Shown here: positions 27,838 through 55,600 of the stretch, in pieces
How positions within the stretch are numbered: the stretch's first letter is position 1
Layout of the letters: each line of letters opens with the position of its first letter
Program-made: the position numbers and the translations under genes
From: Clavelina lepadiformis
Taxonomy: Eukaryota; Chordata; Ascidiacea; Aplousobranchia; Clavelinidae
Length of the DNA stretch: 64,000 bases
Direction: 5' to 3'
Assembly: GCF_947623445.1 (NCBI RefSeq)
Contig: NC_135245.1
Span: 6,951,501-7,015,500, forward strand
The notes under the pieces: model-generated
Databases searched by the model: none
What the model was told of the DNA's origin: nothing
The model's input: the letters and a program-made list of their open reading frames with translations, nothing else

Positions 27838-29627
27838 TTCCAAGATTTGTTTTACTTACGAACCACTGTATCGATCATATTTGGCTGTTAATACGTTTCA
27901 TTTTCTATCGATAAAACCACTTCAAGTTATACAAAAAACGATGCAATTAAACCTGCCGCTAGGCTAATTCGAACGTGATCTGTTTAAACACGACTTCATG
28001 ATCAAACAATCTGCGATATTTTCATGTAGTTTTCCCTTTGTAACCTCACAGAATGTACCAGGATGCTTGCATCTGCTTACACAACAAACTTTTTCTCGTT
28101 TCCATTAAATTTCTAAATTCTAGCGCGGCCTGATAGTTCTTTTGTCTGCGTCCTGAAAACCGTATTTTTTTGCTGAGTGTAATACCCCACTTACCTAGAT
28201 AGATCGGCCATAGACGTTTTGATAAAATCAGGAGTTCACAAATTCGAGGTCCTTGTAATCTAATATGGCTAAACTCCTGTTGCGTTAATTCATACGTAGA
28301 TAAAAAGTGCAAGGATAGACCAATAATATAATACATACGCTGGAATTCTGACATTCGTCCAAGTATTTGTTCAAATGTATCATTTTGCCCAAAAGCAGGT
28401 TTATCGTCTTATGCAACAGAATATTTTAAGGTACAAAAACGGCGTTGCTGTTAAGATTTTAGTTTGCTTGTAAAATTTATTATGATAGAAAACTTTGTTA
28501 CCCGTTACATGCATATATCTAACGAAAATTTAATGTAAGGTATTTCTATAAACAAATAAGGGTTCCTAGAAGAATAAACAAAATAAATATGTTTGTTTTG
28601 CTCAGTCAATGTTCAGGTGCAACCAGGCTGGGCCGGTACCGATGCTTGACGACAACCTTTTTATCGGGCTTTCGATCTTTTGGACTCGTTTGACACAGTT
28701 CGATTGACCTGAATAACATTAAGTTTGATGTGTGTTCAGGAACTGTCTTGGACGAACGGTGAGTTAAATTACACTTACGTCAACTACTTTAAACTAACAA
28801 ACAAACACTTGAAAAAGATACATGATTGCACTTCTTTTTCCTAAAGTGTTTTCGTTTTGTTTTAAAGTCAAGTAAATTTACACGTTTTTACTTATCATTC
28901 TTTTTAGCTGTAAAAAAATCAAACTTAAATTTTCTTAAATGTTGATGTTAATAATTTAATCTGAAATATACAGTTGAAAATCATCTTTGTAAACAATTTT
29001 TATGCATTTGTAGTACATTCATTGGATTGAACGTTATATTGCGATGACGCAACTTGTTATATTCGTAATGCGAAGTCCAACCGAGATTTAGAACGTTGTA
29101 TTGCTCGAGGCAAACCGTTATTTTTTCAGTGTGACTACATCGCATGACTTTTGTTGTCTGAGCAGTTGTAAACGGGGAACAGACAACCGTATTTTTTACG
29201 GTGACAGTTTTCGTGACAGAATTTCATCGAACAGCAAGAAAATGCTACTTTGTGGACACGCGGATTTAAAGAAGTATAATTTTCACTGTTTATACCTACT
29301 GTTATGTGTGCTTCGAATCGATAACGACCTATTGATGTCTCTCTATAAATGGAGTAAAGCCTCCATTAAATCATGATTTTTGAGAATGGTAAATAGGTAA
29401 ACGGCAGACCGATAACCATGTCATGGAACATGCTTTTTACGAACTTAGGCTGTTTGTACGATACAGTAAAGCAAGTATGGAAGGTCGGTTACCGCAAAAA
29501 CAAGTCAAATTTAAGAAATATTAGAGAAAATCAGAGTCGTGTGTAAACTAATGTGTAAAAGTTAGAGGTTAGATTTTACAAGTAATATACACATTCAGTT
29601 AACCCCGTCATTTAAAAAAAATTCCAG
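27838..29627. other. intergenic region between divergent genes, with a probable 5' UTR exon
   Basis: It separates the nuclear receptor (minus) from the glucuronyltransferase (plus), so it should contain both promoters. A strong donor (GAACG|GTGAGT) ends at 28758, and the next gene's ATG at 29628 sits directly behind an acceptor (AAATTCCAG). This suggests an untranslated first exon ending at 28758. A 102-codon open frame on the minus strand (28354-28046) shows no family similarity and is not called. Confidence 0.45.
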
Positions 29628-32600
29628 ATGTCAAGGACAAGAAAGGCGGGATTCATCATCTGCTTTCTCATCGGATCTCAGCTAGTTCGCTTTTGCCTCG
29701 AAAACATGTTTCTTTACGAAGCGACAAGTGAAGACACAATAAAACCAGGCAAAGCGGAAAGAGTTTTGCCGGCGGCGTCAGAGTACACACAAGGCAGTCG
29801 TTACGGTATTCATTACTTTTACAAATCCGAGGGCTTCGGAAATGAGAACTGGAATCCATACGATGTTACATTAGTCTTGCATGGAAGTGTCGATCGGCTT
29901 CACCGGCTTATAGAGATTACCCGAGTATGGCGCGGCCCTATTTCAATGTCAGTATTTGCACCAGCTCAAGACGCAAGCTTCTTAGACGACGCAATCGACG
30001 GCTTGAGGCTGTGCTGGACATCCATACGAAAAACCACTTCGTTCCATATAGTGTACCCAACAACGGCTAAAGGAAACACGTCCAATATCGGTTCTTTCGT
30101 GTATCTTTCATGCAAAGACATTATAAGGCGTTTGAGACGAAAAGTGAAAACTGACGCGGCCGAAAAGTCGATTCCCTATCCACATAACGTCATGCGTAAC
30201 GTCGCACATAAAGGAGTGATCACCAGTCACGTCCTGCATATCGATGCCGATCTGAAACCAACTGGACACCTTCGCGATCGTTTGCTAGAGTTTTTGAAGT
30301 TGAGAACCCAAACAAACAACCAATATCAGGCACGGTAAGTGAAATTCTTTCATGCTATGATGTCTATGTACGTACAGAATGCAGATTGCAGAATCGCTGT
30401 TGTCTAACGAATGTTTTTGTAAATTTCTTTTCCACATTAACTATCGATGATTTAACATTTCTTGTAAGAGTTTTGAGAAATGCAGGAAAAACTGGTGAAT
30501 AATAACCCAAGGGGTACAAATGATCATTATATTTTAAAGTATTTTGGACACAACTATACAGCTATTGCCTACTACTAAAACTGTATACTGTATTACTGTA
30601 TTTACAACTATTGCCCAAAGCCTAGAACCTTTCTAACATCTTCCAAACATCCTTATAAACGGGGTAACTGTAACAATAACTACATTATAAGTGATGCGCT
30701 TACCTTACATAAAACGCCCAAGGTAATCAATACGAACACTGTCGATTTGGAGTGAAGAAATTAGAAGGAAAGAATTCTACAACCCTCGTAAAATCGTGTA
30801 TTTTTGAATATACAATTAGTATACGGTAGTGTTTGTAGTTTAGGGTTGGTGTTTCTATGGGTGTAACTTTTTTTTGTCCTGCCAAGTATTTGAGTATTTC
30901 TTCTAAACGGGTTTCACTAGAAGTTTAAATGAAAACGACAATAAAATTACCGCATTTTTGACTTTCGTTTATGAAGTATCTTGCAGCGTGTTTTCTTTAA
31001 AAGTGAATGTTGAACTAATAGCGAGATTACATTTGGGGTTTTGGACTGTAGGTAAAGTTTCAAAGATATGAAATTCATGTTTGAGGTATATAGTTGTGCG
31101 CGTCTCATCTTGCTTTATTAAAGTCCACTTTTATGGTGTTGCCAGCCAATGCGCAAAGGTTAAAAAGTGGTTTATCCATTCTTCAAGAAATAATGATAGA
31201 ATGTAATAACAAAAATGCGACCAATCCTTGGGTTCATTCTTAATCGTTTCATCAAAATAATCGAAACGCGCACGTTGTAAGCATTCCTACCACACAGTTG
31301 TGGTAATTCTTTAAATATCTTTATACACAGTACTCTATATATCTGTTTGTATAGCGCGATTATTACGTTTGCCGACCCAGTTTATTCAATTTCGAATGTT
31401 ACAGCGTTGGGTGGTGGCAGTTTGGGCTGCAGGGTAGATTTGCTGTATCGATGGCTACAAGATTGGACAGTTTTTACGTACTACTTTCAGGAAACAAACA
31501 CTCATTAGTGACATATAGCTCTGTTTTTTATGACTTTTTATTAAGTTTATTCATTATGCCTTACCTCATGGGTTGTTCCACTGCACTCCACTTGTGGGGC
31601 AGTGGGACAAACACTTTCTGTGTGAATCGTTACAATAGAATTATTTTTGAAGTTTTATCTGGCTGGTTTTGAAATGAATAGTCATAAATTTCAGCTGGAT
31701 GGAGTTTTTAACTCAACCGCTTGATTGAATTACGTAATTTTTCTTCTATTGTGTTTCACTTTCACCTGTGCATCACTTAGCTGCTAAGCTGTTCGTTATT
31801 AAAACCTAGACATCATACCACTCGTTGCTATTAGACCAGTTTCTCTGATCCTTATAGTTTTGAATGAAATCACGTGACGAACTTATCAAGAGTTTTGTCG
31901 AATTTGCAGCCAGAAAGACTTGTACATTCTACCTGTGTTTGAAGTTCGCCATGAAGCCGGTCCCATACGTAACAAAACAGATTTATTTTCAGCTTTTGAG
32001 AAAAGGCAAGCGAGGCCTTACATGCAGGTAACGTGTTACAAGTTTTACGTACAACAGCTGTGTTGCGTATAGTTGATCATTTTCTGTTACCGCTCTGCTT
32101 AATTGGTTGCATTTCAGGAACTTTGCCCCCAGTGCCATAAAGCAACCAACCACGAGCTTTGGTTTCGATCCTCATCAAGCACAAACATTACTGCGTTGCA
32201 TACGTCGTATACTGTTAGGAATATAAGAGAGTGGGAGCCGTACTTTGTCTCCGTTCGAAAGCGACCGCATTTGGACGAAAGGATTACGTCATACGGCCAT
32301 GACAGACTCGTGCATGTGAGAGCCTGAAGTAGAACTACTGTTCTGCAGAGTGCAGATGGTGTGAATAGTTTACACGTGGTTATTACGTTAGCTGGTGTTC
32401 AAATTTAGCAAGGTTTAGCTAATTTTATCATCAGCATATGTTTATAGATGTGCGAATTACAAGCTAACGGCTTCAAATTTCACGTTTTAAGCGACGAATT
32501 CTTGCTTCACCACGGATACAGAAACAAAGCAACCATGTCCCAGAACGAAAGAAGCAGAAAAGAACAAAGAACAAACTTTTATAGCAAATTTATTAAAGTA

Positions 32601-34174: not shown

Positions 34175-35472
34175 ATGATGTTGTGGGCTGTTGTTGTACT
34201 CGCGTTTTTAAGTATCGAGTCTTGCATAGGACTTGGTAAGTTTGCGTGAGTATATCAATAATTAAGTTCTCTATTGATAAAAATATTCAATGATAAACGA
34301 TAGTTTACTTACATTGAGATAACATTTGCTGGTAAGCAAGCGCTTAACTAACGATAACGTTTACGGAATGAAGAAAGACAAATTGCATTATAGACAAGAA
34401 ATGCAGTCAAGAGGGTGAACGTTGCAAACTTCCCTTTAGTTTTGATGGGAAGGCCTCGACTGAGTGCGTGAGCCTTGACGGCTCTTCAAGACTGGTTTGC
34501 CCGGTGAAGTTTTATGCAAGTGGAAGCATTTCAATCAAGTCATGTGTACAATGCGCAGGTGATGATATAGTGGAATGCAATGTAATGAAATGCAATGATA
34601 GCAATTTTCCAATATCTCGTAGTGCTGTATTCTGAAATATTTTTCGAACTGAATGAAATGCGGCGCGATTGGTACTTGGTACTCTAAGCGCTTTAATTTA
34701 GTTGTGATTTGAAATATGATTAACCTAAAGAGTTTTTCGTTTGCGATACTTACAAACAAGTTTCAATAAATGATTCGCCAAGACTGAACTACCGTTATAA
34801 GGAACAATTAATTTCACACTGTCTAACAAAATATACATTCGTAACACCTTGTATGACTTCATGCAGGAGATCCATTGTGCTACATCAAGGCAGAACTGGG
34901 TATCCCGTTTACTATTGACTGTCCTACTTCCTGCTCCAGAGTAACCAGAAGGTTATGGGGTGGACCTTCTTACACAATCGATTCACACGTTTGCGCCGCT
35001 GCCATTCACGCTGGCACGATTGAAGGTAACAACACAACCGTTGTGCGTTGTTTGCTTGCTAATTGAAGAGCCTATGGCGGCTGTTAATACAACGTGTAAT
35101 ACAGACATTAGTTAAAAATGCGTAACTATCTTAGCATGTTTTTAAGGCTTTTTAAAAATAATCATCAAAAATGTTTTTAAATCTTATTGTCTATAATAGG
35201 CTTACTTGGGTAAATAAGGGGCCGAGTAAATAAAAGTATAGTGTTATGCATAATTGAAAAAAATGCCACGTTTGGGAAAGTTGGATTTTTTAAATAAATT
35301 ACAAAAGGACTCTTTACATATAGCATTCTATCATTTCACTTTACAGCATCAACAGGAGGGGCGGCAAATGTACGATTACTACCTTCCTCGTTTTTGCGCT
35401 TTCGAGGTTCTTCCAAGAACGGGGTGATATCTAAAACAAGAACAGTGACAGTAAAAGGCTTTCAACCCACAG
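34175..35472 (+). other. mosaic protease: signal peptide, FN2-like module and LCCL domain
   Basis: Exons 34175-34235, 34394-34558, 34867-35025 and 35347-35472, all phase 1. The first module has [18 protein letters not shown], the CxxPFxFxG pattern of fibronectin type II/kringle-like folds. The LCCL signature is clear: [29 protein letters not shown], then [10 protein letters not shown] and a hydrophobic close before FRGSSKNGV. Phase 1-1 exons are typical of shuffled extracellular modules. Confidence 0.8.
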
Positions 35473-38400
35473 GTGTAATGAACTGAAAAATTGCCTTAGA
35501 TGTATTGTTGCTGTAAATTAGAATTAGTTATAGGTCATGGTATAGTTTTTTGTGACATGTTTTGTTGTCGCGCTCCAACAGCTACTCTGCTCGATCGACC
35601 ACCCACCATTATCTATTCGGAACCCAGCAAAGTTCAAATCAAAGATTCAATCAGGTTTTTCATCATTAGTATTGCTATTGACATCTAAAGAGAAAATGAT
35701 CGATGTGATTAGCGAATGTTATTGATCATTAAATTATTTGGAACAGTTAAGTTCACTTTTGCGGCAAATGAAAACAGCCTCAGGTAAAAATATTCTGAAC
35801 CAGCGGCTGCTCCCGTGGTGCTAGTTACACTCCGATACCGACTGTATAACTGACTCGTGACTCACAGCATTCTGCGTAAACCTAAAATTACTTTGTAGAC
35901 GTTATGAATCGCTCACGTTAAAAAGTGGCTTCGAAAATATCATAGCTCTTGACGTGGACATAAGAAGAAGAGTTGTTTATCTTAGCGATTCAGTCCAACA
36001 TAACGTGTATAGGTTTGTGTTTGTTTGTTTATTTCTTGTGCATAACGTTTCCTCAATTTTTTCACTTATCATGGTAATTCAATTGAAGTAAGAAATTAAT
36101 ATACAAACAAATTTCACTGTTTCACTTCCCAGAGCAAGTCTAAGAGGAACATCGCTTTTGACTGACCCCGTCATTGTCCACGACGAAAGCAAGGTACGAT
36201 TTTCATATAGCAAAGGCAACCTTTTGTTTAGTTTTAGATGGCGTATGCAAAATGAAACTAACCCAAAATAGTAACTTTATGAAGTGCTTACGATACTTAA
36301 TTGGTTATAAATATAGATTAACCTCCCAGAAGGAATCGCCATAGATTGGTTGCATGAAAATCTTTACTGCATTGATGTTGGTCTTCCCGGTATCTTGGTC
36401 TCGAAACCTTCAGGAACACATCTAAAAACACTGATAAAACGAGAGCAAGATTACCTGCCTCGGGCAATTGCGCTAGATCCAATCAGCGGGTGTGGTAAAT
36501 TTGAAAGTAATTTTGCCTGCGGCATTTTCACTTCAATTATTGTAGTGTTGTCATATGTAGGATGGTTTTATTTTTGCAGATATATGTATATTAGCGACTG
36601 GGGAGATTCGCCAAAAATCGAAAGGTGTTTTATGTCGGAAGATAATTGTGTTGCTATTGTCACTCAAAATGTAACGTGGCCAAATGGATTGGCTTTCGGT
36701 AAGTTGTCCATTATATCACTATGAATTAAGCTGCTGAAATTCAGTAGCTCCTAATCAAGTGATCTGTAGACATGCAGGAGCAAAGGCTTTATTGGGTAGA
36801 TGGAAAATACCAAACGATTAGCTCTTGCCGAATCGATGGAAGTGACCGAAGAAACCTCGTCACTTCTAAAAAATATATAAACCACCCTTTTGGACTAGCA
36901 ATTTCCCGAAATAGAGGTGAAATAATGGTATTATGGCAAGTATGACATTTTACAACAAACATTAACCTGAATGCTTTTCTTATGAAGTGCAGTGCATATG
37001 AAGTTATCTTGTAAATTTATTTAGTGTTTTGGACCGACCGCGGTAAGCTAAGACTGCAAAGTGTAGATAAAACATCTGGAGTGAATCTGCATATTCTAGC
37101 GGCCGGTTTAGAAAGACCCTCTGGTGTCGTGACACTAGATCTTGAACAACAACCATTCCGTAAGCTGTACAGAATATGCAAGTCTTACCAATTACAGGAA
37201 ACTGTAATAAGCTAAAAAAGAATAGTCTATAACAAACTTATATGCACGATATTGGGTATATTTCTTTCAGCAACCAGTCGTTGTCTGCACAATACTTGCC
37301 ATCATTTATGCCTTGCCGCCCCTGGAGGATTTCGTTGTGAGTGTCCAAACGGGTTAGTGCCATTGATTGCTGACAGATCCCGTTGTGTTAATGAAACTGA
37401 AAATAGTTCTCTTCTGAACTTGATCACATTTGATGATTCTAACGTTACGCAATTGATGTACGATCCAACTGGAAGGTATGCATATACCTATTATGACTTT
37501 TATATATTCTCGACATATAATCTATTAGTACCTCACTTTATTCACTAAAAGTGATGAAAATTTTGTTTGAATTTCGATAACAGGTCGGCCAGTTCTATTC
37601 TAAAATAATTGTTTGTTTTTCATTTCATATTTACAGATCTTATACAAAATCTGTTCTTGCAGCATCACAAAACGACCCGAGAAGTGTTGTTTTAGATCCG
37701 CGTAATTTTTACATTTATTGGTCAAATATTGCTGAAAGGGTGATTAACAGGTATTTTTTGTAATTTTGAAGTTAACATTTTACCCAGCACCAATAGTCGA
37801 GTTTTTTGAAAACCTTCTCCAAAGATTTATCGCTTTCTGACTTTTTGTTTTCAGAAAACCTGTTTTAAAAGATGTTGAAGAAGGAACTGAAGTTGAAACA
37901 CTCATGCAGGGCTCAAGATTTTCCACCTTCTTACGACAGGCCAATGGCTTAGCAGTTGATTGGCTTCATGGCAATCTATTTTGGACTGACGGACAATTAA
38001 ATTCAGTTTATTTTATTGACATTGCAAGGAGCATCACTCTGTCGTTGAATCGTCGGCATTATATTCGTGTGATTAGTAGAAGTTCTTCATACCACCCTCA
38101 AGCAATTGCTTTAGATCCCGAAAATGGGTAAGAGTCTATTCTATAAAGCAAATACAACTTCTCACTAACTCATAAAGTAACGTATATTAATTGGTCATTA
38201 CAGGAAGATGGAAAGCATTAACGATTTTTTCATTATTTGTTTGTTTGTTTGTTTCTAATTACTTGAAACTTTTTTCAGGTTTATGTACATCAGTGACACA
38301 GGAGATCAGCCTAAAATTGAGAAGTGTTGGATGAATGGAGAATCTTGTACAAGTGTTGTCGAAAATAACATAGCTCTCCCTTATGGTGTCGCTGTGGGTA

Positions 38401-41400
38401 AGTGATTGCAAAGAAAATAGGTTAAAAAGATCCAGCTCACATCCATAGCTTTCGGATATAATTTAAAAGCGCAGCGACGATCTTTATGTCGAGCTTGACT
38501 TTAGATAGTGGCAGTGGCAAGTTGTATTGGTCGGATGGGCTTTTAAAAACTATATCTTCTTGCAACACGGATGGCACTGACAGGCGGACTCTGATAAGCC
38601 TTGGAGAAAATGCCGAACCGTATGGCGTAGTAGTGCATCTTAACTCAGGTCTGAATTTTTCCTGTCATTTAGCGATAAATGATAAAAACGAAAAAAATAT
38701 TTGTTAAAGAATGTATACATAAACATAGACTCGATAAAAAAACACCTTACTGCTACATAAATGTAATTTCAATTTCTAATAGTAAATGCTGACATGAGGT
38801 AAGCATAACGTACGTTATTGCATATAGTTTACTGGGCTGATCGTCAGCTCGGTACGATAAATAAAGCTGAAAAGGCCTTTGGAGTTAATTTTGAAACCAT
38901 CATTAGCGGTTTAAGGAGACCCACTGGCTTGGATATACTAGCTAGACATGGTCATATTCTTCCAAGTAAGTAGCCTACGTTGTAATTTTACTTTATTAGT
39001 AGTATCAGTTTTGTTTAGAATAAACCTATACCATCTATCTATTCTGTGGGATGTTGTTAATTTATTTTGCTATATTTCTTAATTTTTTGCAATTACCTAT
39101 AGCTCAGCGCAAATGCTCAAGAGATGTTTGCCGCTATTCCTGTGTTCCTCTTCCACAGACTAGTGGACGAAACCATGCCTGTGTGTGTCCGCTCTTCCAA
39201 CCATATTTTGATGAATGCAGAACACCATTGATCTCGGGAAATCAAAGTGAAACTGATTAACTTAATTGTTTTTTCTAAATCACAACATCTCTTAATCTCT
39301 AGCATGACCAACGGTTTAAGTCGTGTGATCAGTTGATGATATCTTTTCTTAACCAATGAATCTTTTTCAGTTTTCGACTGTGGAAATGGTATGCAACTCA
39401 GCAGCAACCTTTCCAGATGTGAAGATGCCAACGAATGTTTAAGCGGCAGTCACACATGTGAACAAGTAGGCTTTATCTTGCACTAACAGATAAGTTAATT
39501 TTTGTGAGATTATTTTAAGAAACTAACTCTGTAGATATCAATCCCTTGCTCCTGCAATTCTTTGTAGATCTGTGAGAACACTTTGGGATCTTTTCGATGT
39601 TCCTGTAACGAAGGATTCTCTCTTGCAACTGATGGTCGTAGCTGCGAATTACAAGGTATAACATAGATGCTTTCTTGAGTTCTTTTGACCAAAACTTAAT
39701 GTAACTTTCGGTTGAATGCAGTTAACGCCTGTACTGGCCAGCCTTGCAGGAACGGCGGCACCTGTACGGTTTTGGAGAGCGCCCCAGGCTTCCTATGTGA
39801 TTGTGCGCAAGGATTTAGGTATAGGTGTCACACTTGCGTAGGCTATCTATCTTGCTTTGATAATAGTAAGTCAACTTAAAATCACAACAGTATAAGTATG
39901 TTTCGTTTATCCTGTCGTTTGCTCTTAAAGGGGTCAAACTTGCGACGAAGTTTACGCTTTGATTCAAATTTCACATAAACCAATAAGGACTGGAGAATTA
40001 TTCATTCTCGAGTGTCGAGCACCACTTACCGTTGAGCATGTTATAATATGGCGTCTTAACAGAAAAGAAATCGTTGAGGTATAAACCCATGAGATTTAGT
40101 ATTTGATTTAAGGCCAACTTCTTTTGGACTTGTCTCTCATCTTGATGTAACTCGTGTAAAGCGCGTGCGTGTTCTTTATATAGGAAAAAAGCCAAATAAA
40201 TACATTGGAAAATGGCCGCAAACTGATGGTTTTCCATTCGTCTTACTTGTTTGCTGGGGAGTATCATTGTCAGTTTTTGCTGGACGGAATTGAACATAGT
40301 GCAGCTACATTCGTCACTGTCGAAACCCCGCCTAGTCTGAGTAAGTTTGAGCTTTTTATGCACAAGTTTTCTTTACCAGGATATAATTTTTTTGATTTTT
40401 CTGTTATTTGCGGACAGTCTGTGGGAAAGCAATTGGCATCAACAGCGGCATTCGTCAGAAGCAACCAAGGATTTTCGGGGGAACCGTCACTGCTCCTTTG
40501 GGTGCTCCATTTATGGCTATGCTTTATAAGGTATATGCGATACACGATGTTTAGGAGAGATTAGGGTTTAAAGTTACAGAGGTAAGCGGTAACTTTCCTT
40601 GAAAACTTGTAGACAAAAACCTTTGTTTAACAAACAATTTGCATAAACTGGTGTAAGTATTTGACACTATGCAACATGGATATAGTTTTACAATCATCCA
40701 AAGGTATACTACAGTACAAAGTAAAACTTTAAAATCATTTTTATGTTTTAAAGGATAAATGCAATTTTTGGAAATATTTGTTTTGTCTTTTTCAATGTCT
40801 GAGTTAAACGAAACTTTTTAAAGTTATTAGATTGACCACCAAACGTACTTTTATGGTATAATGACAAAAGCTATAACGACTGCTGATTATTATACGCCAC
40901 ACATAATAAAGTGTGATGAATAAATGCCTGCTGGCGCAAGTTGTACCCAGTTTTAAACCTTAGACTGGTTGCTGATGATGTTGCTAGTTTTGCCGCAAAG
41001 CGTTCAAAAAAAGCCATATAAACAAAACCTGCACTTCTTACAACCGGTTTAAAATAATTGGACTCAAAAATGCCCTTAAAGATTTGACCAAACACATGTC
41101 AAAGTTATTACCCAACTTTTAAACGAACTGATGTATAGGCCAGACACGGGGCGATAAATATCCTATGCTATGTAGAGACCCATGAATCGCCATTTTTGTT
41201 ATTTGTTTGAATTTTGTTGTAAAACGTGCGTAGAAGCAACAAACATATATGCACTACCCTTTTGTCTGTCTTTTGGACAATGCTACATTTTGCCCAACAG
41301 GTGTTGTGCGTCGTACGACTAATACGCACCAACAAAAGTTGCAACAGCAAAATCAAAGTTCTTCAATTGAATATCACAAACAGGCCAAAAATAAATTAAT

Positions 41401-43114
41401 TTTAGTGTTTGCTTTAATGATTAATTATATGAACAATCAATATACTAATTTTCTTAAAAAACTTACTTTGTCTAATTCAATCAAATAGTTTGCTTGAAAG
41501 CGCCTATTTTCAAAAACCGTTATTATACATATCCCGGTCTCTCTTGCCAACTTAATAATAAAAAATTTTCTTTCCCTTGTCACAGACAACATCTGACCCT
41601 ACCTACGTAAAGCCTGGTTTGTTTTGTGGGGCAAGTCTCATCGATAGCTTAGTCGACATGTTGTAACTGCAGCCCATTGTGTGTTGTGTGAGTAAAATTT
41701 TGTTGCTTCTTTGGCACTTTTAGGTATATTACGTTTGAAAAACACACTTTAAAATTTCTCAATTAAGCTCAGTAGCTTAATTCTTCTTTTACAACAAGGT
41801 CTTTAATATCATTTATTTTTTTCAGTTCTTACGCAGAGTGAAATTAGAATATATGTGGGGAAACTTAGTGCAGATGTAAACGTCATCGAACCTTATCAGC
41901 AAAGCGCCAATGTCAGCGCCATTTTCACGTATCCTGATTTCGATCCCGATTCCTTGCACGCAGATTACGCCATTTTAAGGGTTGACGCTGCGTTTACTTT
42001 TACAGAAGGCGTGAAGGTAAAATGCAGATTTGTTCCGTTTAAAGTTAATTGATATGCTAACAACATGCACGTATAGCACTGCGGTTTTCACAGCAAACTT
42101 TTCCTGAATCTACAGCCTATTTGCATTCCTTTGCCAAATGACAACAACAGGGATCTGAAGCCAAGACCACCCAAGGACAAAAACGCAGTAAAGTTTGGGA
42201 TGGTATTTGGGTGGGGATTCATTTCTCAACAGAAAACTTCCCGATCACTCCGTGAGGTACCAGCAATTGTTCTCAATGGCTTGAATATCAAAATAAGAAA
42301 GCCGCAATAGCCTACTTGAGTTTACTTTTTATAACTCACAGAGTCAACTGACATGCTAGTGTATTACTATTGTTTTGAATATAATTTCAGTGCATGTTTA
42401 GGTTAAGTTACCCATTCGAAGACAGGACTATTGCAATAGCGTTCATGAAAGGATTACATCCTTAATGTTTTGCGCCGGTGGAGGGACTACTCAAGATGCA
42501 TGCCACGGGGATTCGGGCGGGCCATTTGCACTTTGGAGGTATATAGCGTCAAAAAATGAAATAGAAAGTAACTACTTCATCGTAAGTTTGGTTACGCAGC
42601 CCGTTGTTAAAAATAGGCGGCTACAGTATGTTAGGAGAATGGGTGTGCCGAAAGTTGCATGATTTTAGTTATTTTGGGGAACGCAACAGAAACAAAGAAT
42701 GTTATAAAGTCAATGTATAGAAATTAGACAAAATGCCATCGAAAGTCCACCAAATCTGCTTACTGTTGGCGTTTCTGTCAAATTGGTATAAATTTGAACT
42801 TGTTTCAGCTATAAACCTACACGTTTTGATCCTATAATTTGACCATGTTTTTTCTTGGTCTTTATGATGGCGTCCGATGCTGTGGATCATTAATAATTTT
42901 TATCCAATTAGTTATAATTTAGGGTAACTGAAGACACTAATCATTAATTCACTTACAGTTAATTAATTATCTTTTTAGCTCTGAGCTAGAGATTTGGTCA
43001 TTGGCCGGAATTGTTTCATGGGGAGATGGATGTGGAAATCCTGAGAGACCAGGAGTTTATGCTCGTGTTGGAGCATCCATTCGACAGTGGATCTACGACA
43101 ATTCTGCATTGTAA
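34175..43114 (+). CDS. secreted mosaic serine protease: FN2-like, LCCL, two YWTD propellers, EGFs, Ig, trypsin domain
   Basis: About 29 exons join in phase, apart from one break, to about 1,310 residues. Order: signal peptide ([19 protein letters not shown]), Cys-rich FN2-like module, LCCL domain, LDLR class B beta-propeller, EGF, second propeller, EGF, calcium-type EGF, EGF, Ig domain, then an S1A trypsin domain with activation site R|IFGG. The protease keeps TAAHC, DYAIL and DACHGDSGG, so His, Asp and Ser are encoded. The Asp six residues before the Ser predicts trypsin-like specificity. A Cys just upstream (ICGKAIG) could tether the heavy and light chains. Frame break: exon 41586-41687 is one base short (or two long) before TAAHC. 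Likely role (inference): an extracellular zymogen in an immune or clotting-type cascade, by analogy with limulus factor C, which also joins LCCL to a trypsin domain. I know of no protein with this full domain set. Confidence 0.8.
35582..37159 (+). other. mosaic protease: first LDLR class B (YWTD) propeller
   Basis: Exons 35582-35654, 35899-36012, 36133-36193, 36317-36489, 36580-36698, 36770-36916 and 37025-37159. Blades show the LDLR-B pattern: [62 protein letters not shown] and [10 protein letters not shown]. In LDLR/LRP proteins such propellers are followed by an EGF, as here. A 32-nt open stretch at about 35748-35779 with a donor after it does not fit the phase and was left out. Confidence 0.75.
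37271..39246 (+). other. mosaic protease: EGF, second YWTD propeller, EGF
   Basis: Exon 37271-37475 carries an LDLR-type EGF ([19 protein letters not shown]) and the first strand of a new propeller. Propeller exons: 37637-37750, 37855-38127, 38279-38397, 38475-38648 and 38828-38965, with [43 protein letters not shown] and [11 protein letters not shown]. Exon 39103-39246 is a further short EGF ([13 protein letters not shown]...HACVCP). EGF-propeller-EGF is the arrangement of LRP ectodomains. Confidence 0.75.
39371..40340 (+). other. mosaic protease: EGF-CA, EGF and Ig domain
   Basis: Exons 39371-39465 and 39568-39655 form a calcium-type EGF ([15 protein letters not shown] then [13 protein letters not shown]). 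Exon 39722-39865 is another EGF ([18 protein letters not shown]). Exons 39951-40078 and 40184-40340 form an Ig fold ([15 protein letters not shown], then GEYHCQF). The acceptor used at 39950 (ACGAAG) was chosen because it keeps phase and open frame; it is not strong. Confidence 0.65.
40531..41585 (+). other. 1.06-kb intron of the protease gene
   Basis: AT-rich intron between the activation-peptide exon and the His exon. Short open frames inside it have no family similarity. No clear repeat ends were seen. Confidence 0.5.
41586..41687 (+). other. exon with frameshift ahead of the catalytic His
   Basis: The exon enters in phase 0 and must leave in phase 1, but it is 102 nt long. The first half reads [11 protein letters not shown] in one frame; the second half reads [11 protein letters not shown] in another. 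Read straight through, a TAA follows shortly after the break. The break lies within the bases AGCTTAGTCGACATG. Either a one-base assembly error or a true disabling allele; all other exons are intact. Confidence 0.75.
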
Positions 43115-44277: not shown

Positions 44278-46745
44278 TTATGCAAAGTCTTTGAGCTTTG
44301 AGAAACTCCTCTTCATTTTCATTTTCACACTCCTCTTCATTTTGAGCTTTGAGAAACTCCTCTCACAGCTCGCAATTGAAACACCAATGGTAAGATAAAG
44401 TTTCAGACACAAGCATAAATATGGTGTCGAATCAAGTAGGTGTGATTTAGCTAACCACTGTAAAACATCAAACGCTGTTGCATTACGATCAAACGTGGTT
44501 TCACTGCTTCGCACCAGCCTCTTAAATCTGTCAATTTCCACAGCTAACTCCAAAAAGTCCACCTAGTCGTCATAAGTGTTTTTAAAAGCGTTGGTGAATC
44601 CATTGTGACTTTCGCTTTGCAGCAGCGCGTGAGGATTCAAAAATCCAAACATATCATTCAAGTGGTGTATGCCAGTAAACCTAGTTTCAGCTTCAAGTTT
44701 AAATCTGTCCAATGCTTGAAACATGCATCGTCTTACTTCTCCAACAACACTAAGGCCAGCATCTTCTGCGTGTTCGCCAGGCATTCCCTTTTTTCTGCGA
44801 ACTCTCCGATCTTCAACTGGAATCTCTAGCTCTGTGCATTTTTTGATCGCTGCATCCACAGAACCTTTAACCAGATTATCTCGTTCTTCCACTAAAAAGT
44901 TGACAAACGCTTTCATCTTGTTAGAGCATTGCGCTAACAGCAATCCTTTTTGCTGCAAGTAAGTTTGAGTATCATGATATTCTCGCAGGATTACTTTCCA
45001 AAAACATAAGAAGGAAAAGAAAGAAAAATTCTGAATCGCTTCTAGAATACTATGAGCGTCACCTCGTGTATTAAGATTTTCGTTTGGATTACATAGTTGC
45101 TCTAGAGCATCCATAATCTCATCAAAACCTGCGTGAAGGGCCTTTACAGCAGCGTGATGTGCGCTCCATCGCGTATCAATCACTCGCTTCAGAGCGATTG
45201 GCGCATGCTTTAGAAGGACATCCCATCTATGAGTAGAGGCAGCAAAAAAAACATATAATCTTTCTAAAACAGCGAAAAATCTGTCGCTTAATTGCGACGA
45301 TCCGACGGCATGAACACCTGCAAGATTCAGTGTGTGATTTCCACACGGTACGAATAGTGCTTTTGGATTTATGTTTTTGATTTTTTGCTGAACTCCAGTA
45401 TGAATTCCCGACATAGTAGATGCGTTGTCGTAGCCTTGTCCCCTACACCTCATCACATCTAAGTTGTTTAGTTCAAGTTCATCTAGAATAGATTGAGAAA
45501 TTTCAGCTGCCGTTTTTCTGCTCAACGGAAAGAAATTCAAAAACGATTCCTTCAGTTGGGCAATACTGTTTTTGATTGTTACATATCTGACTATAAGAGT
45601 CATTTGATCAGTATGTGATATGTCCGGAGTACTGTCGCACATAATCGCAAAATATTTAGCTTCGCGCACCTCTTCAAGAACGATGTTTTTGACTTTTTTA
45701 CTGAGAAGCAAAATAAGCTCATTTTGAATAGTGGGAGAAAGATAAGTAGTTGTCATCTTCTTAGAAATGCGAATATCAGACAGGTGTTTGCTGAGTACGG
45801 GACTATATTTTGCCAGAAGCTTCACGGTCTCTAAAAATTCCCTTGGTTGTTGGATTCAAAAGCTTCACGATGTCCTCGAAAAGGAAGGTTTTGCTTACTT
45901 AGAAATAATATGACATCAACAACGCTTTCTAAAATTGCTTTCCACTTTTTTCGCTCTTCATCCATATGTTTCTGCATGTTGTTGTCAATTGTTTGTTGCA
46001 ATTGTAGTCTCATTGCAAGCTCTTTCCATTTTTCCATGCATTCTTTGTGGATTTCGGAATTCACATGCTCAAATATGCGTGAATTTAAATGCCAAAAATT
46101 ATTGAAACATTTTGTGATAAATAAAGCATAGCCAGTAAAATGGAACAACTTACAACAATAACAATACAATCCCGATTCCTTTTTCGAATATAATAACCAA
46201 CTTCTCAAAATTCTGTCACCGTTTTTGAGTATTTTATAGAACCATTCTTTGGAAACACTTCTTCGTTCAAGCTTAGTGCTATCTCCAACTTTAATTATTC
46301 TGCTGCTGGAAGCAAATGGGCCATCCTTGTTTTGATACTTTTCTGGTCCTCCTTTGACTAGCTCAACTCTCAAATGGTGATCTATAACTTCAGGCCAAGA
46401 GGCCACATCATTGGGCAAATTGTTGACTACTGCAACTGCTTCGTCGTTATTTTCACCTTCGTCTCCATCCAATACTGGCAATGCATAATTGATTTCATTG
46501 GTATTACTTTTGATAGACCCTGTTTCTTGCGTTTCTGCTGATAAGCTGATCTTTTCAGTATCTCTCTGGAGCTCAGCGTTATTGTCTGGGTTTTCATTTC
46601 AATCGTTCTCTGGTAATGTTAAAGAAACATTTGAACCAGAAGAGGTTACAAATTTTAGCATAGCTCCCTTGTGCTTTTTTAATTCTGCTTCTCTTGCTTT
46701 CTTCTTCTTTTTAAAAAAAGCTCCACTTTCTTTGACACGTTTCAT
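44278..46745 (-). pseudogene. hAT transposase-like gene (TTF-type finger, DUF4371, hATC), inactivated
   Basis: Reading leftward from an ATG at 46745: a basic N-terminus with a run of Lys; a premature TGA at about 46598; a TTF-type zinc finger (GLYCYCCKLFHF) with the leading WPEVI and SWLLYSKK; DUF4371 (YFAIMCDSTPDISHTDQM, GQGYDNASTMSG, CGNHTLNLA, TRWSAHHAAV); and the hATC dimerisation region (YLTIGVSIASCERSFSKLK). There is a one-base frameshift in a T run at about 45834, a TAG at 44563, and a scrambled C-terminus where a 21-bp word at 44291 recurs at 44340. It resembles ZMYM1-like hAT proteins. Not functional as it stands. Confidence 0.85.
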
Positions 46746-48937: not shown

Positions 48938-51900
48938 ATGCCGAAGCCTCTATTGAGAAAGACACAGAAGACTTTATTTGAGTCATGGAAGAAAAAAGAT
49001 CCTGAAAACCCAAAATTGGAGAAAAAAAATATCTGTGGGCCATTTCCTGCCTCATCAAACTTTAATGCTAAGCCACAGCAAAGCAAAAGGAACCAACAGT
49101 GTCTTGATGTAATTAACATTTCTGAAGATGAAATTGGTGATGAAGATTTGTTAAGTGCTACTGTTGCCTTGGAACGAACATTGAATGATAGGCAGAAACC
49201 TTCCTCAACTGGTAATGGTGCTATGAGCTAGTGATGAAATATGAAATGAAGTTAGTGGTAAATTCCAGTAATTTGCTAAAATTGATTTCATAAGAGCAAC
49301 TAAACTGAATCCTGTGTGCATCCAAAAAGTATTATGTTTTCATTGTGATATTTATGTTGCAGTTATTGAAGATATACCTGGATTTGATAAGTTTTCTGGG
49401 AACTTATGGATTTATCCAACAAATTACCCCGTTAGAGAGTATCAGTATTTCATTGTTAAAACAGCCTTATTTAAAAACACCTTGGTTGCTCTGCCAACTG
49501 GATTAGGTAAAACCTTTATTGCTGCTGTTGTAATGTATAATTTTTATCGATGGTATCCACAAGGTAAAGTTGTTTTCATGGCCCCAACAAAACCACTGGT
49601 TGCCCAACAAATCGACGCATGCTACAATATTATGGGGATACCTATGGAGGATCAGACACAAATCACAGGTATTTCAATGTTTAGTCATTTTTTCAAACAA
49701 TTGTTTGATTCGTAGAATTTCTGCATGAATTTTGATATAGTGATTTATGGCATCAAACTTAACATTGCTTGTAACTGTATTTTTTACCTTTCTTTCAAGG
49801 TTATAATGTTTGTTACATTTTAAATAGGAGCAACCATGGCATCCAATCGTCGTTCTGAGCTATGGAATTCAAAACGTGTATTTTTCGTAACTCCACAAGT
49901 CATTAACAATGACCTGACTAGGGGTGTTTGTCCTGCAACTGAAATTAAATGCCTCGTAGTTGATGAAGCACATAAGGCTCTTGGCAATCATGCCTACTGT
50001 CAAGTTAGTTGACAATTTAATGTCATAAGCTTTAAGGTTTAAACGATTTTGTTTTTCATCTGCATGTTTACTTACGTTTGCGTTTAAAATTGTGTACCTT
50101 CAGGTTGTTCAGCAGCTTTTGGCACATACACGTGATTTTCGGGTTCTTGCCCTTAGCGCTACACCAGGAAGTGATTTGAAAACAGTGCAACAGGTTTATA
50201 ATATGCTGGGTTGTTTTTCAAGTGTAATGTATCTTCTCACCTTCATGGAATTCTTTATATCAGAAATACATAATCTGTTTTTTTTGTAATAGGTTATTAC
50301 CAACTTGCTGATATCACACATCGAACTTCGTTCAGAAGAGGCAGTTGACATTCAGCAATATACTCATAGCAGAAACATTGAGAAATTTGTAGTGAAACTT
50401 ACTGATAAAATCCTAAAAATGAAAGAAAAGTATCTAAGTGTGAGTGCTTGTATGAGAAATTATATACTGATACTATACTGATATCAACTAATACAAGTAT
50501 TCATCCATTTATGGTGTCCTTATCACTTCTCTGTAATCGTGCTTTGATTGCCCTTTTATTTTGCAGGTTATTCAGATGTTTATCAATTGTTTAGTGAATA
50601 ATAAAGTGATCTTCAATAAAGACGCTGCTTATTTTTCAAAGTATGCACTGCTAATGGCCCGTGATCAGTATCGAAAAGATCCTCCAACTGGTCTATCAGT
50701 AAGGATACATATCCAAAAACGTTTCTATGAATTTCTAAAATTGAATTATATTTTAATAAATTTATAGTCTGTGTAGTATCTTTGAATTCGATATGCAACA
50801 TGCATACAGCTTTAAAAAATATCTTTTACAGAGGAATACTATGGGCACAGTTGAAGGTACATTTGCCATTTTGATAAGTCTTTATCATGGTCTGGAATTA
50901 CTGGTACAACATGGCCTAAAATCATTTTTTATATTTCTCAAAGGATTAATGGAAGGGGAAAAAGGTTTGATTTGTAATATCTTCACAACAGCTTTGTTAT
51001 CAAATCTTTTTAGCATTAGTAATTAAGGTAAATTTGTTACTGTTAGGAAATGTGAGGGCCAAAACCTCCTTGCACGCAAATGAATCTTTCAGAGAAATTT
51101 ACAATGAGCTAATTGACTTATTTGGATCATCTCCTGGTTCTGTTGTTTTGCTCACCCAAACTGCTGGCACCCAGTACTCCAAGAAAGCACATTCTGTAAG
51201 TATTGTTGCCTTAAACTGCTCTGTTTGGTGTTGGCACTCAATGTTAGCTGTTTTCTGTGAAGCGCTTTTGAGCGGGTATTAAGTGCTGTAGAAATGTTTA
51301 GTATTATTATTAGCTGAGCAATTTGTTTCTAAAATCTGACTTATTTTACGCAGGATGTTGTTGCTAGGCCTTATGTCTACAGCCATCCAAAGATGCAGAA
51401 ATTAGAAGAAGTTGTTTTGAATCATTTCCAGAAGGCTCGAACGGGTTAATATTGACTTTGTCAGTTGTAAAAATAAATAAAATTGAGGTTTCTATACAAT
51501 GTAGGTCATTAGTTAACTACGGGACATTATTCAAACTTTTTATAATATATTGCTGAACTTGACTGTATTTTGCATAGCATCTGAACAAGGGACAGGCATT
51601 GAAACACGTGTCATGGTATTTTGTCAATATCGTGATACTGTTCGGGAAATCACCGAACTTCTTCAAATGCATCGCCCATTGGTTCGGCCAATGCAATTTG
51701 TTGGTCATGCCCCTTCTACTAACCCCAAAGACGATGCAAAATCGGGAACAAAATGCAATAGACGGTTTACACAAAAGGATCAACTCATGGTGCATGTTTT
51801 ATTGTTATGCTAAATTTAAGAAATGATGCCTTATTTTACTTTGGACTTTGCATTAACCTTGATATGATTGCTTTTAACTTTGATCAGGTTGCCTTACAAC

Positions 51901-52625
51901 ACTTATTTGTGGTTTCACTGTGTTTTATTTCACTTTGTAAAAAGTAAAAATAAATTTTTAAGTTAAAGTTTCACTTTACTTATTCAGGTAGTGAGCAAAT
52001 TTCGTTCAGGTGATTACAATACACTTGTGTCAACTTGTGTGGGTGAGGAAGGACTTGATATTGGAGATGTTGATCTGATCATTTGCTTTGACTCCCACAA
52101 GAGTCCCATCCGTCTTGTGCAGAGAATGGGAAGAACTGGAAGGAAAAGGAAAGGAAAAATTGTGATGTTAGTTACTGAAGGAAAAGAAGAGAGGGTATGT
52201 AATTGAAAATGTTTAACTGTTTGCTTGTAAATTTTTCTCATGCATGAAGTTACACCTTCTAATTTATTCTAAAAGCTTAGATAAAATAGTTTTTTATTAA
52301 AATGTTTTGACCTTTGTTTAGTCAGTTAATAGATCATTTTTTCTGTGTTGTTTAACCTATTTTTCTGCATTATTCATATTCAAGGATTACAACTCCAGTT
52401 TAGCAAGTCGTCGCAGTATTCACAAGGCAATTTTGGGGGCAGGAAAAACACTGCACTATTATCCTCACAACCCAGCGATGATACCAAGAGGGTTGATGCC
52501 GCAGTGCCACAAAATGTTTATGACCGTTGCTACTAAACCAAACAATGAAAAGAAGAAACCGACAAAACAAACTAAAAAGGAGACTCCGGGTACATCAAAA
52601 GACGTTTCAGTGATGCTGAAAAAGA
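48938..52625 (+). other. FANCM: FANCM exons 1-12: helicase core
   Basis: Exons 48938-49211, 49363-49668, 49828-50003, 50104-50193, 50293-50439, 50567-50698, 50832-50964, 51047-51195, 51354-51444, 51578-51789, 51988-52194 and 52385-52625. The phases close exactly. Motif I lies in exon 2, motif II (DEAH) in exon 3, motif III (SAT) in exon 4, and motifs V and VI in exon 11. The insert domain typical of FANCM/Hef helicases occupies exons 5-8. Confidence 0.88.
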
Positions 52626-55600
52626 GTAAGTTAAAGTTAAACTGATAAAGATTATCTTATTAATGAGGATCAATAGTTAATGTCATAAGCATAAAAGGTA
52701 TAACACTGACAGAACGAATTAATATAAATGTTTAAGTTACATGTGTTTAGGTTAAAGATATTTAGACTAAATTTCTGTGTAATGTTTTGACAGAATGGGA
52801 TTCCACATTTCTCAATAAGCAGCAGATGGAAAACTACCGTAAGAACTTACAACTGACACAAGAAGAGTCTAAACAGCTGAAGAAATTGCCAGTCAGCGGC
52901 ATGTGCCTCTACCTTCAGAAAGATGTACAAGAAATAATTTGTTTTGGGGTTTTGCAAAGCTTGTCACTTGTAATAAGTTTAGTTCAAGAAAATGTTGTTT
53001 TTAGCAATGGGGTCAAACAGCTTCACAAACCAATCTTTCCTTGAATGAATGGTTACCATGGCAAACAAGGCTGCAACAAACTAAATATATTGAACACTCA
53101 ACAAGGACAAAAACTTTTGCAGAGGTATGTGTTACTCTTACACTGCATGATTTATGCTTTGTAATTTATGATTTTAGGTGTTTACTTGCTCAATAAAATT
53201 TTACTCTTTGTAAGGGCTACTGTTTTGTAGTCTTGTTTAAAAGATATACCGTAAAACCTCTATTTCACCGCCACCTCTATTTGAACGTCACCTCTAATAG
53301 AACGCCACTTTTAAAGAAGGGTAGAAAAATAGAGCGCCTCCCTCTAATTGAACGCCACCTCTAATAGAACACCACTTTTAGCGGCGGAATTGTATTAGCA
53401 GGTCTCTACTGATAATTATACAATTGATTAAGTTTTCACAATCTAGCAGTTAAAGCAGCCATTTAAAAGATACCAACCAACATACCGGTAGTAACAATGC
53501 AGTATCACGTTACAATAAGCAGCAGTAAAATAAAGCGCCAACCTCTAATTGAACGTCACCTCTAATAGAACGCCACTTTTAAACAAGAGTTGAAAAATAG
53601 AGCGCCATGGCGGTGAAATAGAGGTTTTACGTATATGTGTTTTCATAGACCTGTGTAACTTTATTTGAGATTTTTGAGTGGAATGTGCTTTCATTACTGG
53701 CCCTTTAATGGATTGTCAGTTTTTTGAACATCTGTGTCAAAGACAGTAGTTTTATTCTGTAGCAAAGTACTAATTAACGATACAATTTAGTTAAATGTAA
53801 TGAAATTTTGTAATTTTACAGCTTTTAGAGGTGTCTGAGGTGATAAAACAATCTAATCAGGAAACTTTTGAAAAAAACCTCGCTCCACTTTTTGGAGCTA
53901 TGGTTGACACAGAGCAATCCACAGTTGTTAAAGCAGGCATTTCTAAATACCTTAAATCTTTGGAAAAAAAACAAAAACTCAAGCCGCAAAAAAGGAAAAA
54001 AGAAGAGCTATTCATAATATCTGATGATGAAGTTAACTGTGTGGGCGATAATTCAATTGACCTTCCAGCATTTGATCTCACGGATGACGCTGATGAACTA
54101 AAGAATGAGATGACATCAAATGTTGTTATCCATAAAGATGATAATACATGTCCATCTTTCAAACAATCAGACGTAAAAAGCACTACAGATGAGAAAAGAA
54201 TTTGTGGTGATGGATCGCAGATTTGCAAAGAAATGGAAATTAAGTATAACTGTAAAAGTTGTGACAGTACAAGTAAAAAGAATGAGCAATGTTTAGAACT
54301 GCAACTTGATAACTCAAATTTCAATTCTAATACCGAAAATTTTGCCAAGACTTTGTTTCAAAAAGATTCATTGTCTTCATTTTCTGCAAACCTCCCTGCT
54401 TTGTGTGTGACACCAACTCAAACCGAAGGTGGCAGTAAGTTTGACTTTGATTGTGCGTCCAAGAACCAATCAGAAAGTGATTCAGATCCAAAATCCGTCT
54501 CTCCTTTGATGGAGTCCATAGCTTTCGATTATTCTGATGATAGTGATAGTAAAAACACCAAAACCGCTAAACCAACATGTTTCAAATTGTGGGATGCACA
54601 AGGTACCGATAAAGTTAGAAAGGGTAGCATTGAACTGAAGAGTGAAGAAGATCTTGACACCAAAATTCCGAAAAAAGAATCACTAGATTTTTTTGAAAAC
54701 AACTCCGCATCGGTAACAACAGATGAGGGCTTGTGTGGCAGACAGGTGGATGAAACTAAGCTTGATAAAACTACATCATTCTCAATTTCTGACATGGACG
54801 AAATTCCCAACAATGAAGCAGAACAATTTAAAGATGATATTGAATTGCCCATTAGGCTAACTCATGCTCATCAATCCTTGTCCTTAAACAAAGAAGACAA
54901 GAGCATAAAACCAAACTGCAATATGTATGCTGCACAAGTGGAACCTGCTATTTCTACAGTAATGTCACCTCGCCCCATAAACGTGGAGCCATTTGATATG
55001 TCTGCTGACATGTTTGCTCCCGAGTTTGATCTTGACTTTGATCTGGGATGTGGTACACCACTTGCAGAGAAGAAAATGGAGTCCAAGTCTAACAATGATG
55101 ACAGCACAGCCAACAACACATGTAATAAACATAAACCTACAGCTATAAAGGGTAGCGATAGTAAGGATGCTACAGTGACGCATATTAGGCAAACATCAGC
55201 ACTGGCAAACTGTGATGAACCCACCATACCACCCATCTTGACTACCACAGAAGATACAATAGCAAGCATTAGCATTAGCATTAGCCAGACAAACAGAAAA
55301 GAAAACAGGACTATATTTGCTGAGTTAAATGCGAATGTTGCAAATTCAAATATTCCTTTTGCCTCAGTGAAGCCCCAGGTCATATCTCCCTCAAACAGAG
55401 AAAAATCAAATGATACGTCCACTACTTCCAACACTACTAGGTCTGGGAATGAACTTTCAAACAGCGAAAAAAAATTCAAATTGCATGTTAAACGGAGAAG
55501 AGTTCTTTTCTCGGAACCTGCTGATTGCTCTCTAATTCAAGATGAAGACGATGATTTTGCTGATTTTCAAACAAAACCTTTATTAAAGAGAAGGCGATTA

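What the first reader, a model, noticed from the sequence alone, without database searches (positions are those of the whole stretch)
34175..43114. Possibly undescribed protease architecture: LCCL + two YWTD propellers + EGFs + Ig + trypsin
LCCL with a trypsin domain occurs in limulus factor C, and propeller-EGF blocks occur in LDLR/LRP receptors. I know of no protein that joins LDLR class B propellers to a trypsin-type protease. The chain is secreted with no membrane helix, the triad is encoded, and the specificity pocket is trypsin-like. It could sense a ligand through LCCL or propellers and start a proteolytic cascade, a plausible innate immune or coagulation trigger in a basal chordate.
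Basis: partly seen in the sequence, partly recalled or inferred. Interest (0 to 1): 0.85.

Follow-up and report, generated by a model that had tools for sequence, protein, structure and literature searches.

The report
Sea-squirt propeller-trypsin mosaic gene, frame-broken
A sea-squirt gene joins receptor-type propeller domains to a blood-clotting-type protease in one secreted protein, but the copy in this genome has a reading-frame break just before a catalytic residue.

Summary
The domain order is real. A 29-exon model (34175-43114, +) has GT/AG at 28 of 28 introns; its first 24 exons read as one open chain of 1,056 codons, while the other two frames hold 61 and 81 stops. Ig and protease exons lie 77 nt apart in matching phase, so two genes are unlikely. 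Correction: exon 25 breaks the frame. The frame reading CGASLIDS meets TAA at 41664-41666; His57 lies in another frame with exons 26-29. "The triad is encoded" holds only across that break. The genome fits Clavelina lepadiformis kaClaLepa1.1 (HiFi, QV 67.4), so a sequencing error is unlikely. Best reading: a secreted mosaic serine-protease zymogen built by phase-1 exon shuffling, whose assembled haplotype is a recent null or polymorphic loss. Eight aimed literature searches gave no protein of this order, but no other animal genome or protein database could be searched. New variant of a known kind.

The parts
34175..34235 (+). Exon 1: start codon and signal peptide ([20 protein letters not shown])
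   Evidence: Highest hydrophobic 19-mer of the protein, KD mean 2.17
34394..34558 (+). Exon 2: fibronectin type II-like module, phase 1-1
   Evidence: Pfam fn2 E=0.0046, 17.4 bits, below cut-off 22.2; MMP2/MMP9 matches
34867..35472 (+). Exons 3-4: LCCL domain, phase 1-1
   Evidence: PF03815 E=3.8e-14; cochlin 1jbi E=0.0018
35582..37159 (+). Exons 5-11: first YWTD (LDLR class B) beta-propeller, phase 1-1
   Evidence: PF00058 E=2.3e-29 on this part; LRP2/LRP6 structures
37271..37475 (+). Exon 12: EGF-like (FXa_inhibition type) cap of propeller 1, then start of propeller 2
   Evidence: FXa_inhibition E=6.1e-5, 23.5 bits, below cut-off 33.4
37637..38965 (+). Exons 13-17: rest of second YWTD propeller
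   Evidence: PF00058 E=4.1e-19 on this part; 82 of 213 aligned residues identical to propeller 1
39103..39246 (+). Exon 18: cysteine-rich EGF-like module after propeller 2, phase 1-1
   Evidence: Position and Cys pattern; no best Pfam stretch falls here, secondary stretches were not located
39371..39655 (+). Exons 19-20: calcium-binding EGF, phase 1-1
   Evidence: EGF_CA E=1.3e-8
39722..39818 (+). Exon 21: EGF, completed by the start of exon 22
   Evidence: PF00008 E=5.4e-7; the donor at 39818 keeps the frame
39931..40340 (+). Exons 22-23: immunoglobulin domain
   Evidence: Titin chain E=1.5e-8; Pfam Ig_3 E=0.0068, below cut-off
40418..40530 (+). Exon 24: linker Cys (ICGK), activation site QPR|IFGG (IFGG from 40471), start of the protease domain
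41586..41687 (+). Exon 25: strand with Cys42 (FCGASLIDS) in one frame and VVTAAHC with His57 (41675-41677) in another; in-frame TAA at 41664-41666
41826..42256 (+). Exons 26-27: protease domain, Asp102 at 41963-41965, Cys122 (PICIP)
   Evidence: no stop in the used frame of E26-E29
42402..43114 (+). Exons 28-29: Asp189 (42495-42497), Ser195 (42513-42515), C-terminus and stop

Best explanation
This is one ascidian gene for a secreted mosaic serine-protease zymogen: FN2-like, LCCL, propeller-EGF, propeller-EGF-like, calcium EGF, EGF, Ig, trypsin. Phase-1 exon shuffling placed an LRP-type propeller block and other modules in front of an S1A protease. The likely mechanism, by analogy with factor C, factor XI and C1r-type proteases: the non-catalytic arm binds a ligand, matrix or microbial surface; cleavage at QPR|IFGG activates an Arg/Lys-specific protease; the linker Cys bonds Cys122 so the enzyme stays attached to its sensor arm. 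In the assembled haplotype a recent frame break in exon 25 truncates the protein (about 1,082 aa) before His57, so this copy is a null allele or an early loss. Shown: gene structure, domains, break. Inferred: activation, tethering, ligand sensing, role, and that intact alleles exist.
For: 28 of 28 introns GT/AG and E1-E24 in one open frame. Domain matches. Modules E2, E3-E4, E5-E11, E18 and E19-E20 each begin and end in phase 1, and E24 starts in phase 1. Introns between the Ig and protease exons and within the EGF block are 66-124 nt. Asp189 with Gly216/226; Cys136 and Cys201 both absent as a pair; Cys122 and the linker Cys present. E26-E29 carry 0 stops in the used frame against 7 and 12 in the others, which argues that the break is recent. 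HiFi, QV 67.4, and one haplotype deposited as primary (passages), if the species is right.
Against: The assembled sequence cannot encode a complete protease domain in one frame. No cDNA, relative or expression data were available. Ig and FN2 are below Pfam's cut-offs. Two module boundaries (EGF/propeller 2 in exon 12, EGF/Ig in exon 22) lie inside exons, so shuffling would have moved larger blocks there. The sensing role rests on analogy only. The species identity rests on assembly statistics.
Confidence: 0.6

Rival explanations
1. Two neighbouring genes: a propeller/EGF/Ig protein and a separate protease.
For: Gene models without cDNA can fuse neighbours; the 1,055-nt intron 24 is the longest of this model.
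Against: The long intron lies inside the protease domain, after IFGG, not before it. The intron between Ig and linker exon is 77 nt, phases match, there is no stop at the end of E23, and the only strongly hydrophobic signal sequence is in E1.
Confidence: 0.05
2. The break is fixed and the gene now makes a non-catalytic secreted LRP-like ligand binder, or is an early pseudogene.
For: In-frame TAA before His57 in a QV 67.4 assembly; no second locus of the gene among the 55 protease-domain matches in the genome.
Against: E26-E29 keep Asp102, Asp189, Ser195, the splice sites and an open frame. A stop with four introns downstream would be expected to trigger mRNA decay (general knowledge).
Confidence: 0.3
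3. Alternative splicing inside exon 25 restores one frame: either a 41-nt mini-intron (41607-41647) or an internal acceptor before 41648. The product keeps the triad but lacks the Cys42 strand.
For: The mini-intron product is open. Donor after 41606 scores 4.0 (exon 25's own donor 3.6 in the same matrix, 1.6 left-out); acceptor before 41648 scores 2.2 (exon 25's own 5.3, 0.5 left-out).
Against: 41 nt is shorter than any of the 28 introns here (minimum 66). The removed stretch encodes the canonical FCGASLI motif and Cys42, so the domain would probably misfold. The better-scoring internal acceptors, before 41673 (6.5) and 41613 (3.2), stay in the broken frame.
Confidence: 0.07
4. Assembly or sequencing error in exon 25.
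For: One isolated lesion in 3,875 coding nt.
Against: HiFi 117-fold, QV 67.4 (if the species is right): about 7e-4 errors expected in 3,875 nt (own arithmetic). The site is not a homopolymer.
Confidence: 0.07

Closest known systems
LDLR/LRP receptor family (LRP2, LRP4, LRP6)
   Same: Two consecutive YWTD propellers with EGF caps; phmmer's best stretches align residues 201-767 to LRP2 1460-2010 and 178-552 to LRP6
   Different: No LDLR class A repeat in Pfam at E<=1, no transmembrane-like stretch; joined to LCCL, Ig and a protease
Limulus clotting factor C
   Same: LCCL and EGF upstream of a trypsin-type domain in a secreted mosaic zymogen (factor C composition recalled; the title of its 1991 paper, seen in the reference list of PMC514892, names complement-, EGF- and lectin-like domains)
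   Different: No sushi or C-type lectin domain at E<=1; factor C has no YWTD propellers (recalled)
Coagulation factor XI / plasma kallikrein catalytic domain
   Same: Best PDB matches of the protease domain (E 1.2e-29), Asp189 specificity
   Different: Apple-domain regulatory chain in FXI/kallikrein (recalled); here LCCL-propeller-EGF-Ig; catalytic domain frame-broken
LCCL + trypsin locus at C1:24083643-24088600 of the same genome
   Same: LCCL and trypsin exons on one strand within 5 kb
   Different: No propeller found in the frames scanned; no tblastn match to the finding's protein at E<=0.1

Membership tests
S1A (trypsin/chymotrypsin) peptidase | Trypsin-domain profile match | tested here: met
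   PF00089 149.4 bits over positions 1-220, with XXX at the break
S1A (trypsin/chymotrypsin) peptidase | His57-Asp102-Ser195 in one open reading frame with the rest of the domain | tested here: not met
   His57 is in a different frame from E1-E24 and the start of E25; in-frame TAA at 41664-41666
S1A (trypsin/chymotrypsin) peptidase | Proteolytic activity | not testable with these tools
   Needs expressed protein
LDLR/LRP receptors | YWTD propeller plus EGF | tested here: met
LDLR/LRP receptors | LDLR class A repeats | tested here: not met
   No Ldl_recept_a among the 14 families listed at E<=1
LDLR/LRP receptors | Transmembrane helix and cytoplasmic tail | tested here: not met
   Only the signal peptide is strongly hydrophobic
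Limulus factor C family | LCCL plus trypsin domain in one gene | tested here: met
   with the frame break inside the trypsin domain
Limulus factor C family | Sushi and C-type lectin domains | tested here: not met
   Neither is among the families listed at E<=1
Limulus factor C family | Endotoxin-triggered activation | not testable with these tools
   Bench assay needed

The most novel reading that the evidence does not exclude
A previously undescribed class of chordate protease zymogen in which an LRP-type double propeller serves as the sensor arm of a trypsin-type enzyme. It segregates in Clavelina as working and broken alleles, giving individuals with and without the cascade trigger (or with a soluble decoy).
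Probability: 0.25. Interest if true: 0.65.

Novelty: new variant of a known kind. Interest (0 to 1): 0.42.

Why it matters
If confirmed by cDNA, it shows that LDLR-type propellers, otherwise known from receptors, nidogen and matrix proteins (recalled; coral matrix LY protein in PMC7853314, passages), were also used as the regulatory arm of a protease. That would add a new way to couple ligand binding to proteolysis in chordates. The frame break makes it a possible case of presence/absence variation in a cascade protease.

Tried and rejected
An alternative end for exon 21 (39865) was tried first; it put E22 out of frame and gave no EGF C-terminus, so the donor at 39818 was adopted. A duplicated or alternative exon 25: tblastn over the window found one place for it; (91 of 91 candidates scored, matches at E<=0.001) found one place in the genome. 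A direct DNA search for exon 25 was asked for three times and not answered. Skipping exon 25: rejected, because E24 ends in phase 0 and E26 then reads a stop (frames).

A second gene of the same order in this genome: by eye over the places listed, no Ldl_recept_b place lies within 30 kb of a trypsin or LCCL place apart from this locus (nearest: C3, 35 kb, trypsin on the upstream side). This is a weak test: one search scored 150 of 388 candidates, cut its list, and does not list this locus's own trypsin exons. A stronger test, reading 20 kb downstream of the eight other propeller clusters, was asked for three times and not answered.

Literature: searches returned 0 papers; (15 papers; 5 papers), seen as listings, gave no such protein; (LCCL, factor C, ascidian; 20 of 35 papers listed) gave background only. 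PMC7853314 (passages) names LY and Tryp_SPc in one list of abbreviations that covers several proteins; whether one protein there bears both was not shown in the passages. PMC514892 (passages) gives LCCL background. The region of the genome's 471-aa intronless trypsin ORF (L013) was scanned in one frame, apparently not the right one, and gave no family; not pursued.

Full report
Setting. The window is C6:6951501-7015500 of a 209.06 Mb genome in 95 contigs. Genome size, family hits falling on contigs C1-C9 and a C1 of 28,783,666 bases fit Clavelina lepadiformis kaClaLepa1.1 (210.1 Mb, 9 chromosomes, longest scaffold 28,789,166; PMC10884593, passages). Ascidia mentula (197.0 Mb, also 9; start of abstract) fits less well.

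Gene model. I placed 29 exons by hand and tested them. 28 of 28 introns are GT/AG. E1-E24 read as one open chain of 1,056 codons; the other two frames of the same joined DNA hold 61 and 81 stops, and composition alone gives P(open)=1.7e-28. With the first codons of E25 the open part reaches 1,077 residues at ..CGASLIDS and 1,082 at the stop. Exon 21 ends at 39818; this restores both the frame and a standard EGF ending.

Domains. Pfam on the joined protein (XXX at the break): Trypsin 1.8e-43, Ldl_recept_b 5.1e-43 (five stretches), LCCL 3.8e-14, cEGF 2.5e-10, EGF_CA 1.3e-8, EGF 5.4e-7. The same table also lists SGL (3.9e-12, a propeller family) and Rxt3 (0.00065, below cut-off, taken as chance). 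The propeller block scores best with LRP2, then LRP4 and LRP6. The two propellers are 38% identical over 213 residues, and most matching exons have similar sizes (E6/E13 114/114, E9/E15 119/119, E10/E16 147/144, E11/E17 135/138; but E7+E8 234 against E14 273, with one intron fewer), which points to an internal duplication, perhaps already in an LRP ancestor. The Ig module matches a titin chain (1.5e-8) although Pfam's Ig models stay below cut-off.

One gene or two. The Ig-to-linker intron is 77 nt, the EGF-block introns are 66-124 nt, phases match, there is no stop at the end of E23, and the only strongly hydrophobic segment is the signal peptide in E1. The longest intron (1,055 nt) lies inside the protease domain. 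Fusion of two genes by the model is unlikely; no cDNA was available.

The frame break. Exon 25 is 102 nt. Read in the frame that continues E24 it gives [26 protein letters not shown] and then TAA (41664-41666). VVTAAHCVL, with His57, is in another frame, and that frame continues into E26-E29. Eleven nucleotides separate the two trypsin-like stretches, not a multiple of three. The site is not a homopolymer, and the published consensus quality is QV 67.4 from 117-fold HiFi, so an error is unlikely though not excluded. One search shows one place for exon 25 in the genome; a direct DNA search did not complete. E26-E29 are intact (0 stops against 7 and 12 in the other frames) with the key residues, so the break is probably recent. 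Two in-frame splice escapes exist (a 41-nt mini-intron; an internal acceptor before 41648) with middling scores; both would delete the Cys42 strand, and 41 nt is below the shortest intron of this gene (66).

How it would work, if intact. Shown by sequence: signal peptide, linker Cys (ICGK), R|IFGG activation site, Cys122, Asp102, Asp189, Ser195, absence of both Cys136 and Cys201 (chymotrypsin numbering and disulphide pairs recalled). Inferred: cleavage after QPR frees the Ile N-terminus, the linker-Cys122 bond keeps the enzyme on the sensor arm, and the enzyme cuts after Arg or Lys. What the LCCL and propellers bind is unknown; the LCCL domain of akhirin binds bacteria (start of abstract of PMC12839204 in the listing), which makes surface sensing plausible. 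The assembled allele itself should give no active enzyme.

Origin. FN2-like (E2), LCCL (E3-E4), propeller 1 (E5-E11), E18 and calcium-EGF (E19-E20) are each bounded by phase-1 introns, as are the larger blocks E12-E17 and E21-E23, and E24 begins in phase 1. This is the usual mark of exon shuffling in extracellular proteins (general knowledge).

Copy number. Searches of the whole genome with the protease domain, propeller 1, the N-terminal part and the EGF-Ig part each return this locus as the one strong match; the other listed matches to the protease are 32-56% identical family members (one search scored 147 of 519 candidates). Another LCCL + trypsin locus lies at C1:24.084-24.088 Mb, with no propeller found. 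Whether another gene of this genome joins propellers to trypsin was tested only weakly (see Tried and rejected).

Known or new. In eight literature searches aimed at this order I found no protein joining YWTD propellers to trypsin; the library holds open-access papers only, and no protein database or other animal genome could be searched. It works like mosaic zymogens such as factor C, but it is not a factor C (no sushi, no lectin domain) and not an LDL receptor (no class A repeats, no membrane helix). Domain-shuffled proteases are common in marine invertebrates (general knowledge), so I rate it a new variant of a known kind, of moderate interest, lowered by the frame break and the missing cross-species test.

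Noticed in passing
L029:8644 to L030:3600 (C1:24083643-24088600): A second gene-like locus with LCCL followed by trypsin exons (CGGSVIDKRWILTAAHC ... GDSGGPLVC) on one strand; Pfam found no domain between them in the frames scanned. To the eye the middle recalls a vWA domain; Pfam did not confirm it.
   Followed up: partly
C4:18770507-18780367 and C4:21201834-21347396 of the same genome: LCCL is strongly expanded: 43 of the 61 LCCL exon matches lie in two regions of C4 (counted by eye).
   Followed up: no
window 2172-22963 (+): Several Glyco_hydro_1-type ORFs in tandem; two of them were tested by Pfam, the others only resemble them by eye.
   Followed up: partly
window 44563-46598 (-): Two overlapping ORFs in different frames that both match DUF4371 (transposase-derived, hAT-like by recall), probably a decayed element just downstream of the gene.
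   Followed up: partly
window 29616-30338 (+): Glyco_transf_49 (dystroglycan-type glycosyltransferase) ORF upstream, E=1.5e-36.
   Followed up: partly
window 49272-55627 (+): DEAD/ResIII helicase ORF (FANCM-like by recall) and, further on, a 607-aa ORF without Pfam match at E<=0.001.
   Followed up: no
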